A stretch of DNA of 64,000 nt from Firmicutes bacterium ZOR0006 (GTDB lineage Bacteria > Bacillota_I > Bacilli_A > Culicoidibacterales > ZOR0006): contig JTLC01000015.1 of NCBI GenBank assembly GCA_000798955.1, forward strand, positions 1 to 64,000. The letters run 5' to 3'. The position numbers and the translations under genes are program-made. The notes below the pieces were generated by a model. The model did not search any database. It was not told the origin of the DNA and worked only from the letters and a program-made list of their open reading frames with translations. This document shows positions 42,007 through 52,091 of the stretch, one piece after another. Each line of letters starts with the position of its first letter. Position 1 is the first letter of the stretch.

Positions 42007-42996
42007 ATGGTAAAAAATCAATGGTATGTGGTTTTGCTTGCGAGTGATGTCAAAGTTGGTCAAGCAGTCGGATGTACTCGCTTCGGTACCAAACTTGTGC
42101 TCTGGCGCGATCATAACCAGCAAGTACATTGTATTTATGATCGCTGTATCCACCGGGGGGTGTCTTTATGTAAAGGCGAAGTAAAAAATAATCATATTAT
42201 GTGTCCATTTCATGGGTTTGAATTTGACGGTAGTGGTCGGTGTGTGTTGATTCCTGCAAATGGACAAGTGACACCGGTTCCGAAAGGCTTTCAGACGCAA
42301 GCGTATCGTGTTGTTGAAAAATATGGGTACCTTTGGCTCTATTATAGTGATCAGTTTCCAGAAACAGATGAAGTTCCGTTTTTTTCGGATTTAGCCGCTG
42401 AAAACGGTGCTGCTTTTGCGACAAACGACTTTGTTGATTTATGGGAGACACACTATACGCGTGCTGTTGAAAATCAACTAGATGTTGTGCATTTACCGTT
42501 CATTCATCGCAAGACAATTGGGAAAGGAAACAAAACAATTGTCAACGGTCCGTACCTCGAAGTGGATGAAGAACAAATGATTATTCGGACATATAATGAA
42601 GTTGATCATGGGCAGAAGCCAAAATCAGCACAGGAAATTGCTGAACAGGTTTTACAAAAAGAATATAAACTCGAATTTCGTATGCCAGCTTTATGGCAAA
42701 ATCACGTGTTTGATAAACTCCGAATTACAATTGCTTTTTCGCCAATTGATGAAGAACATACGATGATTTATATGCGGACGTGGCAAAAAATCATGACAGT
42801 ACCAGGACTAAAGCAGGTCCTTAATTGGCAGTCGATGCGTCAAGCAATTCAAGTGCTCTATGAAGATAAATATGTTGTTGAAAGCCAAGAACCAAAAGCA
42901 ACATCATTGCGAATGGGAGAAAAACTTATTAAAGGGGATCAACCAATCATCGTTTTTCGGCAAATGCGTGAACGTTTATTACAAGAAATGGACTAG
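42007..42996 (+). CDS. Rieske-type non-heme iron oxygenase, alpha-subunit-like
   Basis: 329 residues. The N-terminal Rieske domain has both ligand pairs of a [2Fe-2S] cluster: C47-I-H49 and C66-P-F-H69. The catalytic domain shows the mononuclear iron motif E155-N-Q-L-D159-V-V-H162 then H167, so the protein looks active. The family uses O2 and reducing power to hydroxylate or demethylate substrates. The length and spacing resemble the single-subunit PaO/vanillate-demethylase-like group. No reductase or ferredoxin gene is adjacent. Such enzymes are uncommon in fermentative Gram-positive bacteria. GGGGGAG precedes ATG 42007. Monocistronic. Confidence 0.9.
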   Translation: MVKNQWYVVLLASDVKVGQAVGCTRFGTKLVLWRDHNQQVHCIYDRCIHRGVSLCKGEVKNNHIMCPFHGFEFDGSGRCVLIPANGQVTPVPKGFQTQAYRVVEKYGYLWLYYSDQFPETDEVPFFSDLAAENGAAFATNDFVDLWETHYTRAVENQLDVVHLPFIHRKTIGKGNKTIVNGPYLEVDEEQMIIRTYNEVDHGQKPKSAQEIAEQVLQKEYKLEFRMPALWQNHVFDKLRITIAFSPIDEEHTMIYMRTWQKIMTVPGLKQVLNWQSMRQAIQVLYEDKYVVESQEPKATSLRMGEKLIKGDQPIIVFRQMRERLLQEMD

Positions 42997-43023
42997 AACA
43001 AGGGTATCCTTGTTCTTTTTTTT
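42996..43023 (+). terminator. Intrinsic terminator after Rieske gene
   Basis: GAACAAGG (42996-43003) pairs with CCTTGTTC (43008-43015), followed by eight Ts. The stem includes the last base of the stop codon. Confidence 0.93.
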
Positions 43024-43127
43024 AGCAATTTTATTAGTTAGCAGGGGAAAATACCGAGTTTGCTTTGCAATTCGTTAGGTTTTGATTTAAAATAAAGAGT
43101 GTAAGTGGTAAAAAAAGGGGAGAAAAT

Positions 43128-45767
43128 ATGAAAACAAAAACGATTCAATATTACGAGCAACAGGTGACAATTCACGAGCCGTATTATTCACAAGCAGTAA
43201 CTGCATTTCCCTTTAAATCATGTACGACGTTAATTAATCATCTAGTGACATTTTTAGATGTAAAAGTATTGGGTGATTTACCTAATGATTTTGCGACACT
43301 TCCATTTCAAGTGAGCGAAAAGAAAATTCATAAATTTTTTGAACAAGTAGCAGAATTTACATTTATCTCGCCAGATGATCAATTTAGTTTATTATTTGCG
43401 GGACGAATTATAACTTTACCGCCAACAATGCTCACTGAAGTCATTGATCCAATTGATTATGAAACGTGTCCCATTGTCATTCAACGGTTAATGGAACATG
43501 GCTGGACAACATACGGGCAATTACCAGCCCAACTTGCAAGTTTAGAAAATATGCGCTCAATCGGTCACAAAGCTATTGAAAAGTTTGTGGATCACTTGCA
43601 TCATGTAATTGCCAGACACGAGGCATCGTTACGTCGACTTTCGCAAGCAGGAAGCTTTACACTACAAGAGCAAATCCAACACGAGTTACAACGGATATAT
43701 GATGAATTTCAAAATTACACAAGTGAGAGCTTTAGTGATCGCGATTTGTTTATTTTCGAAAAATTCTATGAACAATATTTGACAGATCATCGCTGGACGC
43801 TCGAAGCTATCGGTCAAGAGTTAGGGGTGACTCGAGAACGAATTCGACAAATTCATCAAAAAAATAAACGCCGACTGCTAGCAATTGCACAACCGATTAT
43901 GCCCTTACTCATACAAGAGATTGAAAAGCGGCATGGATTTAGTCGGATTGATTTTTTCCGAACAATCGATTTCACGAAGTTTTTGGTGACAGAAGTGTTA
44001 TATGAGCAAGGCATTTACTTGTATAGTGAAGAATTGGCAATTGTGACAACATATCAAAAGCCGCAATTACGGCAGTTAGAAGAAAAAATTGCTGATTATG
44101 TCGAAGGAAAAGCGCAATTTCAATTGCTAACGTCTTCACAAACAAAAGCAATTGGCGAGAAAATCAAACGGAAATTTGCAATTCGATCAACTATTTTTAT
44201 TAAAGAACAGCTACGAAAACTCTTTTTGCCGACCCGAAATCGTCAATACGTCTTACGTTCAATTTCAAAGGCACAAATTGTCGACATTGTCTTGCAACAA
44301 TTTCCACTAGGAATTGAATTGTATAAAAATGAAGAGCAAATTCGGCAGTTAGCTAATGAAATTGTTGCTCAAACATTTACAAATGAGAAAGATCGGGCAA
44401 TTGTCGGTTTAATCCAACGCGAAGAACTGCAATATCGGATTTTACTGTGGGGACGTGGGTATTATATTCATCGTAATTTTGTCACGTTAGATCAAACACT
44501 GTTACAAGAAATTCATGAGTATTTAGAACAATTGCTGACGAGTATCCCTTCAACAACGGCGGAGCATGTTTATGAGCAATTTGAATCATTACTCCAGGCA
44601 AATAATATTCCCAATAAGTACGCCTTATACACTTTGTTGCGATTGTCAAATTCGACGGCGGTTATTGCCTATCCAGAATTTCCCAAGATTATGCATGCTG
44701 AAAAAAGCGGGGAAAATTATGATAATCGTTCCCAAATTGTTGATTATTTAAAAGCCTGTGGCCACCCGGTGACAACTGAACAATTACGGAAAGAATTTGT
44801 CGAAGTACGGGGTTGGAAATTATATACGCTGACAGCAACACTCTCATATAGTACGGAAATTATTTCGACGAACTATAGTGAATATGGATTACTTGCCTTT
44901 TATCAACAATTTCAAAAACGCGATTTTCTCAAAATTGCGCAAACAATTCGGCAAAAGTTAGAAGAGCAGCTTATCATTGCAATTGATGGTATCTTTTATG
45001 AGTACGAGAGTACGTTAGAAAAGAGCGGGATTCAGTCCCGACAACTACTCTATTCGTTACTCAAACATTTCTATGGTCATGAGTTTCGCTTCACACGCTA
45101 TCCGCATATTGTCAGTGTCGATTATCACGATGATATCTCATTTGCCGCAATTATTGAAAATTACTTGTTACAAGCTGGTGAATTAGTCAATCGTTCGCAA
45201 ATGCTCGAGTGGCTTTCGCAAGATGTTGGGGCAAATAGTCGGACATTTGATGCTGTTTTACAGAAATCGGCGGCAATTATCGCATATACAAACGGACAAA
45301 CTGCTCAATATATCCACCGTGATATTTTAGAGTGGAGTGAAGAGAAGCAAAAGCGACTTGGGGAACTCGTTCATGAACATATGCAGCAAAAACCATCAAC
45401 ATTTGTGAGTGCGCAATGGGTGCTCGATAAATTTACTTTACCGCAGCTCGGGCTGAAATTACCGTGGAATAAAGAACTGTTAATCAATTTATTGAAACGT
45501 GATGAAAGTTTTGTATTAATTGGTTCAGAATCACGAATTATCGTAGAGCGAGATAATTTACAGGGTATTCATTCGAACATGACTTTTATTGCTCATGTAA
45601 TTCGGCGAAAATTTGGCGGCAAGACAACAGTCGAAGAACTTCGCTATAAATTGAAATCATATAATTTTTCTCGTGATGGGGACTTTTTAGAAGATACAAT
45701 GAAGGCATTAGCAGTAGAACAAGCACCATTCTTTATCGATGGTGAAATGATTGCGTTGAAAAATTAG
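43128..45767 (+). CDS. Large protein with RNA-polymerase-alpha-CTD-like and sigma-4-like DNA-binding domains
   Basis: 879 residues. Two segments (about 30-75 and 113-160; landmark GWTTYGQLPAQLASLENMRS) resemble the helix-hairpin-helix alphaCTD of RNA polymerase. Residues 222-250 are a near-perfect sigma-70 region-4 helix-turn-helix (WTLEAIGQELGVTRERIRQI). The remaining ~600 residues contain several winged-helix-like repeats, for example around 445-510, 535-590 and 695-760. No sigma-2 domain is present, so it is not a sigma factor. It may bind promoters or polymerase, or recognise DNA in repair or defence. I know no function. It has its own GGGGAG ribosome-binding site and terminator, with no evident partner gene. 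Confidence 0.75.
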   Translation: MKTKTIQYYEQQVTIHEPYYSQAVTAFPFKSCTTLINHLVTFLDVKVLGDLPNDFATLPFQVSEKKIHKFFEQVAEFTFISPDDQFSLLFAGRIITLPPTMLTEVIDPIDYETCPIVIQRLMEHGWTTYGQLPAQLASLENMRSIGHKAIEKFVDHLHHVIARHEASLRRLSQAGSFTLQEQIQHELQRIYDEFQNYTSESFSDRDLFIFEKFYEQYLTDHRWTLEAIGQELGVTRERIRQIHQKNKRRLLAIAQPIMPLLIQEIEKRHGFSRIDFFRTIDFTKFLVTEVLYEQGIYLYSEELAIVTTYQKPQLRQLEEKIADYVEGKAQFQLLTSSQTKAIGEKIKRKFAIRSTIFIKEQLRKLFLPTRNRQYVLRSISKAQIVDIVLQQFPLGIELYKNEEQIRQLANEIVAQTFTNEKDRAIVGLIQREELQYRILLWGRGYYIHRNFVTLDQTLLQEIHEYLEQLLTSIPSTTAEHVYEQFESLLQANNIPNKYALYTLLRLSNSTAVIAYPEFPKIMHAEKSGENYDNRSQIVDYLKACGHPVTTEQLRKEFVEVRGWKLYTLTATLSYSTEIISTNYSEYGLLAFYQQFQKRDFLKIAQTIRQKLEEQLIIAIDGIFYEYESTLEKSGIQSRQLLYSLLKHFYGHEFRFTRYPHIVSVDYHDDISFAAIIENYLLQAGELVNRSQMLEWLSQDVGANSRTFDAVLQKSAAIIAYTNGQTAQYIHRDILEWSEEKQKRLGELVHEHMQQKPSTFVSAQWVLDKFTLPQLGLKLPWNKELLINLLKRDESFVLIGSESRIIVERDNLQGIHSNMTFIAHVIRRKFGGKTTVEELRYKLKSYNFSRDGDFLEDTMKALAVEQAPFFIDGEMIALKN

Positions 45768-45769
45768 AA

Positions 45770-45822
45770 AGAAACCACGAAATATGTGGGCTAAATTGCC
45801 AAACATTTCGTGGTTTCTTTTC
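45770..45822 (+). terminator. Intrinsic terminator after the 879-residue gene
   Basis: GAAACCACGAAAT/ATTTCGTGGTTTC stem across a 21-nt loop, followed by T-rich sequence. Confidence 0.9.
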
Positions 45823-49609: not shown

Positions 49610-50914
49610 TTAAGTAAATAATGCACTACTGTTACTGGTGCTAATTTGGAGTTGTTCTGCATGCTCAAGTCCAGCAATGAGGCTGTGAGCAGCGCTATTG
49701 GTAATCACGCGCTCTTTAAACTCTGTTCCACCAAACAAGACGTTTTGTACCGCAAACTGAAGGCGGGTATGTGTATCGCGTATTTGCAGATGGTGGAGTT
49801 TAGCAATAGTGACAGCTTCAGCTTGAATCAGCGCGCCCTTGAAAATCATTGTTTCTGGTGATTGTAAGAGTGAATTTGGCGCCTTTAACTCACCAAGATC
49901 AATTGTGAATTGACTGTGAGTTATTGTCAGACCATCAATTTTGAAGAAATGAATATCTTTAAGGTGGAAGAGTGAAAGTGCTGGCTGTGTCGTAGTAATA
50001 AATAAACCGTTTATCACTAAATTGGACCATTCTAATGTATGAACCTGTTCAAAGATGAAGTATTCGGGTAAATATGCCCCTTTTTTCGTACTCAAGGCAC
50101 AGTTGCGAATTGTAACTGTTTGATTATCATGAAACCGAATTGGTGTCGTGAACTGGGTCAGATCAAAATATGCATGCGCAATATCAACATGTTTACTTGT
50201 AATCAGGTGATAATCTTCCACTGGGAAGCGGACAAGCTCAGTGGCAGTAAATTTAAAATAGCGCTCGTTAGCAACTAAGACTCCTGATACAAACGTTTGT
50301 GTGTAATAAGTGAAATAATCGAGTAAGGGGTTGAGTTGCATAAAGTTATTTGTAAAAAGAACAGTATCTTGGAGGAGCACAATTTTTGCTAATAGTGTTA
50401 GTTGCTCAAGTTCTTCAGAAGTCAAAGCAAAAATATTGGCAAGTTCAGCAATGTACTGTAAGCTTTGCGGTGTCGGTTGGCTCTGACAGCTACTTAAAAT
50501 TAAAGCATCGACAATAAAGGTGTAACGGTACGGTGTAGCGGTGATTAATGGGAGAAATTCATCAAAGATATACTCATCGAGATTCGTTGCTAATTGTAAA
50601 TGCGCAACAACAGCTTCTTCCGGAGCGATAGCTGTGTGTAGCCGTGTGAAAAAAACGAGGTTCGTCATTAAATCACCTTGCAAGTGTGCTAAAACCGTCG
50701 CTAAGATGGTGCAATAGCGTGACTTTAATTGATTTTCCGCTTGGTACAAAGGGTGATTATGGTAGTGCATTTGATTTGCGAGACGTTGGACAACGTTGAG
50801 ATCATATTCAGTAAATGTATTTGGGACTGCTTCAGACTCAGTAAGGCTGGCTTGCATGGCATGGAGCTGATCAAGAATACCAGTTAACTCCTGTTGTAAA
50901 TGTTGTGTTTTCAT
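49610..50914 (-). CDS. Unknown protein: helical (TerB-like?) N-half, beta-helix-like C-half
   Basis: 434 residues. Residues 1-180 are predicted all-helical. A stretch about 75-180 (NLVFFTRLHTAI, LDEYIFDEFLPLI, ELANIFALTSEELEQLTLLAKIV) has the rhythm of TerB-like helical domains. From about 225 to 430 the protein becomes a series of short beta strands, 'IRFHDNQTVTIRNCAL', 'LEWSNLVINGLFI', 'IHFFKIDGLTITHSQF', 'LHHLQIRDTHTRL', that resembles a right-handed beta helix. No signal peptide. One base separates it from the upstream gene, so they are translated together. Both assignments are fold impressions only, and I know no characterised homologue. Confidence 0.7.
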   Translation of the reverse strand: MKTQHLQQELTGILDQLHAMQASLTESEAVPNTFTEYDLNVVQRLANQMHYHNHPLYQAENQLKSRYCTILATVLAHLQGDLMTNLVFFTRLHTAIAPEEAVVAHLQLATNLDEYIFDEFLPLITATPYRYTFIVDALILSSCQSQPTPQSLQYIAELANIFALTSEELEQLTLLAKIVLLQDTVLFTNNFMQLNPLLDYFTYYTQTFVSGVLVANERYFKFTATELVRFPVEDYHLITSKHVDIAHAYFDLTQFTTPIRFHDNQTVTIRNCALSTKKGAYLPEYFIFEQVHTLEWSNLVINGLFITTTQPALSLFHLKDIHFFKIDGLTITHSQFTIDLGELKAPNSLLQSPETMIFKGALIQAEAVTIAKLHHLQIRDTHTRLQFAVQNVLFGGTEFKERVITNSAAHSLIAGLEHAEQLQISTSNSSALFT

Positions 50915-50915
50915 A

Positions 50916-52091
50916 TTATACTTCTCCTTCTTCTGATGGGACTAATGTGTGTGTGAATGGAATTGTTGCTGGCAAGTGCCAATTTTTTTGGAGATAGGCT
51001 TGAAACTGCTCAGCAAGAAACGGTGTTGCCAGTTGTGGTGTAGCTTGCACTGTTAGTAAAGCTTCAAAGGGATGCTGATCAGCTGTTAATGGCTGACGTT
51101 GTGTCCGCTTTTGAAAAGCCTGGAGTACTTGCGTTGTTGCGAGTAACGGTTGTAATACGGGACTCGTGGGAGCTTCGTCACCAAGTAATTGTTGAATGAG
51201 ACGATGAAAACGTAGATGAAAAGTTTGCCACATGTTGAGCTCTTGCTGGAGTTGTTTCAGTTGGCTTTGATGTTTCGCCATTCGGACAAGATTGCTACTC
51301 GCCAATGTCAGTTGGCGTTGTTCGTAGTTAATCAGTAATTCTAAGGCGTGCTGATAGCTTGAAAATTGGATCTCGAATGCGTGGTAAATATCCTGATGTG
51401 TTGGGACAAGTTCTAATTCAGCTAATTCAGTTACAAAATTAAGCGAACTGAGAATTATCACATTTGTTTGTGTAAATTCTTGCGTCAATTGCTGATTGTC
51501 AGCAACAATAAAATGATACTTATTGGGAAATTGCTGAATTTGTGCATAGCAACTTGCTTTATTCGTTTCATCAAGAAAGTAGAGAAAATAATCTGTTAGC
51601 ATAAATTGTTCTTGTTGAAATGGTAGTAAAAATACGAGTTGGCTCGTTTCAAGCTTTGGTGTTTGCACATAAAGATGCTGTAAAAGATGGGAGAAATCGG
51701 TGGGAAGTGTGCTGAGTTCTTCATAACTAAAAGTTTGTTGCATATGAAAAAGATTGAGTCCAAGTGCCATTTCTTCACCACTTTTGATGAATGTTGGTGT
51801 TTGGAGTTGATACCATGCTAAATCAAGCGAGGTCAAAAATTGGTGATAGTTACCGAACACCGTAACGGTTGCTGTTTGTTTTAAATTTGGATATAGCGTA
51901 TAAAACAGAAATTCTCGATAAAGTTTCTGTAATGTCTGAACTGCAATTTTTGCTTGTGGACGATATGCAAATTCAATAATTTCAGGTAGTTGTTGCCCGA
52001 AGAAACTATGAAGTTCACGAAAATTATGTTGATCAACCACTTGTTCATAGGGTTGGATTAATTTATAGAAAAGTTTGTGTAATTCGTTCAT
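50916..52091 (-). CDS. Unknown protein, possible degenerate dynamin/GTPase-like partner
   Basis: 391 residues, soluble, helix-rich. Residues 70-110 (TVTVFGNYHQFLTSLDLAW) sit where a dynamin-like GTPase would have its P-loop, but the GxxxxGKS residues are absent. Residues 260-310 (YEQRQLTLASSNLVRMAKHQ, then QLKQLQQELNMWQTFHLRF) form a long coiled-coil-like helix pair. No recognised family. It is translationally coupled to the following gene (1-bp gap) and starts after GAAAGGAAAAAATATAC. The GTPase idea is weak. Confidence 0.65.
   Translation of the reverse strand: MNELHKLFYKLIQPYEQVVDQHNFRELHSFFGQQLPEIIEFAYRPQAKIAVQTLQKLYREFLFYTLYPNLKQTATVTVFGNYHQFLTSLDLAWYQLQTPTFIKSGEEMALGLNLFHMQQTFSYEELSTLPTDFSHLLQHLYVQTPKLETSQLVFLLPFQQEQFMLTDYFLYFLDETNKASCYAQIQQFPNKYHFIVADNQQLTQEFTQTNVIILSSLNFVTELAELELVPTHQDIYHAFEIQFSSYQHALELLINYEQRQLTLASSNLVRMAKHQSQLKQLQQELNMWQTFHLRFHRLIQQLLGDEAPTSPVLQPLLATTQVLQAFQKRTQRQPLTADQHPFEALLTVQATPQLATPFLAEQFQAYLQKNWHLPATIPFTHTLVPSEEGEV

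What the first reader, a model, noticed from the sequence alone, without database searches (positions are those of the whole stretch)
43128..45767. 879-residue protein joining two alphaCTD-like modules, a sigma-4 helix-turn-helix and tandem winged-helix-like repeats
These DNA- and polymerase-contacting modules normally belong to different RNA polymerase subunits. There is no sigma-2 domain and no catalytic domain. The combination could make a transcription factor that mimics polymerase contacts, a genome-defence sensor, or an architectural protein. It stands alone with its own terminator.
Basis: partly seen in the sequence, partly recalled or inferred. Interest (0 to 1): 0.7.

Follow-up and report, generated by a model that had tools for sequence, protein, structure and literature searches.

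The report
Lone sigma-4/winged-helix DNA-binding protein
This gene encodes a large DNA-binding protein that carries the promoter-reading finger of the cell's own main sigma factor plus a long row of DNA-gripping domains, and it is a free-standing relative of proteins found at the head of several bacterial antiviral gene clusters, so it is probably a promoter-binding regulator or a defence component without its usual partners.

Summary
The ORF is real: 879 codons, own ribosome-binding site, terminators on both sides, and a 71%-identical, syntenic ortholog in the one other held genome of the genus. A sigma-70 region-4 helix-turn-helix (res. 202-251) is confirmed; its recognition helix (GVTRERIRQI) is identical to that of the organism's principal sigma factor. 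There is no sigma-2 or catalytic domain. The C-terminal two thirds model as about eight tandem winged helices. The two alphaCTD-like modules are only weakly supported in this protein, but distant relatives with the same order of parts carry two canonical PF03118 modules, so the proposed architecture is real at family level.

Profile searches recover over 20 relatives in Bacilli. Roughly half head or sit inside DNA-targeting defence loci: candidate system PDC-M33, Pbe/Dnd phosphorothioation, and a BREX locus (a sigma-less form). The other half stand alone, as here. No phage, plasmid or viral-contig copy was found. MzaA and PglW are the nearest named proteins; it fails membership in both.

Best reading: a multivalent binder of -35 promoter elements, unable to open DNA itself, derived from the recognition subunit of defence systems. 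Whether the lone copy regulates host promoters or defends against phage is open.

The parts
43128..45767 (+). 879-aa protein P0001, monocistronic
   Evidence: ORF; 71% identical ortholog in congener G001, pN 0.195 vs pS 0.745
43185..43367 (+). res.
   Evidence: z=-0.35 vs RpoA-CTD for 20-82; repeat of 81-165 z=4.6 (ortholog 2.8)
43425..43622 (+). res. 100-165: second alphaCTD-like helix-hairpin-helix module (MRSIGHKAIEKF)
   Evidence: z=4.7 (ortholog 3.8) vs RpoA-CTDs; not seen by profiles
43731..43880 (+). res. 202-251: sigma-70 region 4 (4.1 and 4.2)
   Evidence: Pfam PF04545 above cut-off; aligned with own SigA
43827..43856 (+). res. 234-243 around the sigma-4 recognition helix, VTRERIRQIH; GVTRERIRQI identical to own SigA
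   Evidence: R236/E237/R238/R240/Q241 conserved in 11-12 of 12 family members
44061..45764 (+). res. 312-879: about eight tandem winged helices (approx. 312-376, 381-448, 456-523, 533-588, 597-663, 672-730, 738-802, 808-879)
   Evidence: AF2 secondary structure, Foldseek, family profile
44268..44471 (+). res. 381-448: most conserved winged helix (91% identity between the two orthologs over 381-450); FPxGI and RGYYI motifs shared with the family
45432..45497 (+). res. 769-790: family signature LPxLxxxWNKxLL
43065..43093 (+). promoter-like TTGCAA-17-TAAAAT (9 of 12)
   Evidence: such matches are not far above chance frequency
43117..43122 (+). ribosome-binding site GGGGAG, 5 nt before the ATG
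   Evidence: read from the sequence
42995..43016 (+). terminator of the upstream Rieske-domain gene, which separates the two transcripts
45770..45820 (+). terminator-like 15-bp perfect inverted repeat with 21-nt loop and T-rich 3' arm
   Evidence: read from the sequence; not called by the scan, which allows loops of at most 8

Best explanation
A free-standing, multivalent promoter-binding protein. Shown: a sigma-4 helix-turn-helix whose recognition helix is identical to that of the cell's principal sigma, an array of about eight winged helices (model), no sigma-2 and no enzyme domain, a single-gene transcript, and constraint between two species. Inferred: the sigma-4 unit reads -35 (TTGACA-like) elements, the winged helices and the N-terminal HhH/alphaCTD-like part grip the flanking DNA, and because it lacks sigma-2 it cannot melt the -10 element. 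It therefore occupies or competes for promoters (a silencer or road-block, possibly with RNA polymerase contact through the beta flap) rather than starting transcription. It descends from a family whose other members probably serve as the DNA-recognition or regulatory subunit of DNA-targeting defence systems (PDC-M33, Pbe/Dnd, BREX variant); this branch works without those partners.
For: Sigma-4 match and identity of GVTRERIRQI with own SigA; recognition residues conserved in 11-12 of 12 members. Winged-helix array. Homology of the C-terminal part to the family: hhalign probability 99.3%, E=6e-21 when the family profile excludes the window protein and its ortholog. Defence-locus membership of relatives. 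No partner gene within the transcript; the ortholog's genome lacks M33A and DndB. Locus synteny and core-gene-like conservation: 71% identity against 27-84% for its neighbours.
Against: No DNA-binding or expression data. In some relatives the sigma-4 is degenerate (G183: KDRVRI) or missing (G562, G615), so -35 reading is not the family's only job. Only two species carry this branch, so vertical keeping is judged from one pair. The AF2 model is of moderate quality (pTM 0.35).
Confidence: 0.42

Rival explanations
1. A stand-alone anti-phage protein: it patrols or marks promoter-rich incoming DNA (or stalls phage transcription) by itself and needs no neighbours.
For: About half of the relatives are in defence loci; lone copies recur in several branches and pair across distant genera, e.g. 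G364/G531 at 67% identity in different families, which fits horizontal transfer; no enzyme is needed for a road-block defence.
Against: No nuclease, ATPase or other effector domain; the window locus is not a defence island; conserved in place and slowly evolving between the two species.
Confidence: 0.28
2. Recognition subunit acting in trans with a partner elsewhere in the genome, for example the PDC-M33-like GHKL operon on contig C2 of the same genome.
For: G000:C2 carries GmrSD, an M33A-like GHKL ATPase (E=6.8e-52) and an M33B-like protein without a sigma-like first gene.
Against: The congener G001 keeps the sigma-like gene but has no M33A; the C2 operon has GmrSD in the first position instead; seven other genomes with lone copies also lack M33A.
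Confidence: 0.1
3. An architectural (chromosome-organising) protein that bridges many sites through its winged-helix array, with the sigma-4 as just one more DNA contact.
For: Eight or so DNA-binding units in one chain and no enzyme domain.
Against: The sigma-4 recognition residues are among the best kept of the chain (89% identity between orthologs over the domain; near-invariant in the family), which argues for specific sites; narrow and patchy distribution (about 3% of Bacilli genomes for the family).
Confidence: 0.12

Closest known systems
MzaA (PADLOC PDLC02203, NCBIfam NF041931), sigma-factor-like protein of the mzaABCDE anti-phage system
   Same: Sigma-70 region 4; partner operons of relatives contain GHKL/MutL-type ATPases; 7 of 12 family members hit the model
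   Different: Where located, the match covers only about 30 residues of sigma-4; in MzaA the sigma-4 is at the C-terminal end (673-701 of 726), here it is at 202-251 of 879 and is followed by the winged-helix array; no mza partners adjacent
PDC-M33 candidate defence system (PADLOC PDC-M33A/B/C)
   Same: Relatives are the first gene, directly upstream of M33A-B-C, in G341, G503, G057, G513, G531 and (M33A-B seen) G349
   Different: No M33 genes beside the window gene; the sigma-like protein is not itself a model of the system in PADLOC
PglW of BREX (alphaCTD-like helical domain followed by winged helices; PMC12839542)
   Same: The alphaCTD-then-winged-helix layout; the alphaCTD part of relative P0002 hits PglW (E=1.3e-5); a sigma-less relative in G562 sits beside BrxP-BrxC-PglZ
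   Different: PglW has kinase domains and no reported sigma-4; the window protein has no kinase
Pbe/Dnd phosphorothioation systems (PbeABCD, PMC6459918)
   Same: Relatives adjoin PbeA/PbeC/DndB in G077 and PbeC in G046
   Different: No Pbe or Dnd genes beside the window gene, and no DndB in the genome
Principal sigma factor SigA/RpoD
   Same: Region 4, with identical recognition helix
   Different: No region 2; cannot be expected to bind the -10 element or open promoters

Membership tests
sigma-70 factors | region 4 with -35-reading helix-turn-helix | tested here: met
   PF04545 above cut-off; identical recognition helix to own SigA
sigma-70 factors | region 2 (-10 binding, core binding) | tested here: not met
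   no Sigma70_r2 match at E up to 10
MzaA | full-length model match with sigma-4 at the C-terminal end | tested here: not met
   22 bits against a cut-off of 800; only 29 residues matched
PDC-M33 system | adjacent M33A (GHKL), M33B, M33C | tested here: not met
   neighbours are a Rieske oxygenase and a solute-binding protein; M33A-like gene only on another contig
RNA polymerase alpha C-terminal domain (PF03118) proteins | PF03118 match | tested here: inconclusive
   no Pfam or profile-profile match; pairwise z=4.7 for res. 100-165; canonical in relatives P0002/P0003
PglW | Ser/Thr/Tyr kinase domain before the alphaCTD-like and winged-helix parts | tested here: not met
   no kinase match
the sigma-4/winged-helix family described here | colinear C-terminal winged-helix array (FPxGI, RGxY, GIxNxYxL, LPxLxxxWNKxLL) | tested here: met
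   hhalign 99.3%, E=6e-21 against the family without the window pair; alignment A7
promoter-binding regulator | binding to -35 DNA and effect on transcription | not testable with these tools
   needs experiment

The most novel reading that the evidence does not exclude
A previously undescribed family that strings RNA polymerase promoter-contact modules (alphaCTD, sigma-4) onto winged-helix arrays is the interchangeable 'promoter-reading' subunit of several unrelated defence systems (PDC-M33, Pbe/Dnd, BREX), so that these systems find invading DNA by its promoters; the window protein is a lone form that has become a host regulator or a single-gene defence.
Probability: 0.3. Interest if true: 0.8.

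Novelty: new variant of a known kind. Interest (0 to 1): 0.55.

Why it matters
If the sigma-4 part really reads -35 elements, these proteins would show that bacteria use the promoter code itself to recognise or silence DNA, both inside antiviral gene clusters and as single genes. The family ties together three defence types that are usually treated apart, and it gives a concrete, testable prediction: the target is the same hexamer that the cell's main sigma factor reads.

Tried and rejected
Window protein as a phage or plasmid gene: no tblastn match in 50,697 phage and 72,556 plasmid records and none in viral contigs for the window branch or the wider family. Weak Pfam hits (TBK1_ULD, LisH, COG2p_C, S6) are far below their cut-offs. 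Lipocalin hits in the PDB have E-values of 0.17 or more: chance. Profile-profile test of the N-terminus against 27 RpoA C-terminal domains: no better than shuffles. A separate fold of the N-terminus failed (pLDDT 37), so it was not searched further. Fold hits to cullins and proteasome lids have rmsd over 20 and low probability: ignored. The tree places the window pair on a long branch next to other long branches; its position is not resolved, so I draw no conclusion on which defence branch it came from, nor on the number of switches between lone and operonic forms. The relative in G066 lies at a contig end, so its 5' context is unknown.

Full report
What is there. The ORF at 43128-45767 (+) encodes 879 residues. 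It has a GGGGAG ribosome-binding site five bases before its ATG, the upstream Rieske-oxygenase gene ends in a terminator at 42995-43016, and a perfect 15-bp inverted repeat with a T-rich arm follows the stop codon at 45770-45820. It is therefore its own transcription unit. The neighbours are ordinary: a helix-hairpin-helix (ComEA-like) protein, a ComEC-like protein, the DNA polymerase III delta subunit and a Rieske oxygenase to the left, a solute-binding protein and a hydrolase to the right.

Conservation. The only other held genome of the genus (a metagenome-assembled 'uncultured Firmicutes') has a 71%-identical full-length ortholog, followed by the same genes in the same order. Identity of the genes in that block ranges from 27 to 84%, so this gene is kept about as well as the core genes around it. 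Amino-acid-changing differences are few against saturated silent ones (pN 0.195, pS 0.745; dS is saturated, so a dN/dS ratio is not meaningful). The best-kept parts are the sigma-4 region (89% identity) and the second winged helix (91%). The left flank differs between the two species.

Domains. Sigma-70 region 4 is above Pfam's cut-off, and all credible sequence matches in the PDB are sigma region 4. The stretch GVTRERIRQI, which in housekeeping sigma factors contacts the -35 element (established knowledge), is identical in the organism's own RpoD/SigA-like sigma factor. There is no sigma-2 and no catalytic domain in any library used. From residue 312 to the end the AlphaFold2 model shows about eight repeats of helix, strand, helix, helix, beta-hairpin, mostly at pLDDT 60-90. 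The best structural matches are proteins with tandem winged helices: UFL1/DDRGK1, and the C-terminus of elongation factor SelB. The model's overall arrangement is not reliable (pTM 0.35).

The alphaCTD claim. In the window protein it is weak. Neither Pfam nor profile-profile comparison sees it. By pairwise scoring against 27 RpoA C-terminal domains, residues 100-165 stand out from shuffles (z=4.7, and 3.8 in the ortholog), while residues 20-82 do not, though they resemble 81-165 as a repeat (z=4.6, 2.8 in the ortholog). These are the best of several segments tried, so they are suggestive only. The stronger argument is by family: relatives in genomes G384 and G330 (P0003, P0002) begin with two unmistakable alphaCTD modules (PF03118, E=2.3e-11 and 2.8e-23), followed by sigma-4 and a C-terminal part homologous to the family's winged-helix array (hhalign 98.2%, E=2.8e-14).

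The family. Profiles of the C-terminal array find relatives across Bacilli. The window pair's C-terminus matches the profile of the others with 99.3% probability and E=6e-21. In one search, 392 genomes gave about a dozen genomes with more than a sigma-4 match, so roughly 3% carry one; most rows of that search are ordinary sigma factors. The surroundings fall into two classes. Defence loci: directly upstream of PDC-M33A-B-C in G341, G503, G057, G513, G531 (contig C15) and, as far as read, G349, with shortened, sigma-less forms in the same place in G595, G615 and G216 (E down to 6e-156 for M33A); next to Pbe/Dnd genes in G077 and to PbeC in G046; a sigma-less form beside BrxP-BrxC-PglZ in G562; near a C5 cytosine methyltransferase in G066 and a helicase in G218. 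Lone genes: G364, G531 (contig C68), G183, G639, G552, G539, G540, G542 and the window pair. Lone and operonic forms are mixed on the tree, but most inner branches are poorly supported. M33A genes do not always have such a neighbour: in several genomes, including the window's own, another gene takes the first position, so the sigma-like protein looks like an exchangeable part.

Partners. The window genome has an M33A-like operon on another contig, headed by a GmrSD-type gene, but the congener keeps the sigma-like gene without any M33A, and most other genomes with lone copies lack it too. A trans partnership is thus possible in this genome but not required in general. No copies were found in phages, plasmids or viral contigs (one search found only sigma-4 matches).

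How it most likely works. Steps shown: the sigma-4 unit, the winged-helix array (by model and homology), the absence of sigma-2 and of enzymes, the single-gene transcript (from sequence), the constraint. Steps inferred: binding of -35 elements through sigma-4, added grip through the winged helices and perhaps the N-terminal HhH part, and hence occupation of promoters without opening them. I put 0.42 on a promoter-binding regulator or silencer, 0.28 on a stand-alone defence protein, 0.12 on an architectural role and 0.10 on action with a distant partner.

What is known. Of the named proteins, MzaA ('a sigma factor' of the mzaABCDE system, as cited in PMC9523054) shares only sigma-4 and has it at the other end. 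PglW of BREX shares the alphaCTD-then-winged-helix layout (PMC12839542) but has kinases and no reported sigma-4. A sigma-related helix-turn-helix is also reported inserted in some DndH proteins (PMC10853773) and in BrxL (PMC12839542). In the open-access papers I searched I found no description of the family itself; papers in subscription journals were not available, so it may have been noted there. I therefore call it a new variant of a known kind.

Noticed in passing
L138 4625-13075 (G000 contig C2, same genome as the window): A defence-type cluster: PLD plus SF2 helicase, GmrSD (DUF262/HNH), a PDC-M33A-like GHKL ATPase and an M33B-like protein; GmrSD takes the first-gene position that the sigma-like protein has elsewhere.
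   Followed up: partly
L131 77-11922 (G562): BrxP-BrxC-PglZ BREX locus headed by a 996-aa relative of the family that lacks sigma-4.
   Followed up: partly
L132, L133, L172, L178, L179 (upstream of M33A): Shortened relatives (247-475 aa; in some only a stretch similar to G122 matches) without sigma-4 directly upstream of M33A, which suggests the sigma-4 part is dispensable in some systems.
   Followed up: no
L033 1149-2495 (congener, left of the ortholog): A 448-aa N-terminal fragment of a DUF4011-type helicase, apparently a decayed gene.
   Followed up: no
window 49610-52091: Two adjacent genes of 434 and 391 aa with no Pfam match, conserved in order in the congener at only 34% and 27% identity.
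   Followed up: no
L067 11996-15872 and L126 2042-6701 (beside lone relatives in G183 and G639): Runs of five to six tandem small secreted-like proteins of similar size and start beside the lone gene in both genomes.
   Followed up: no
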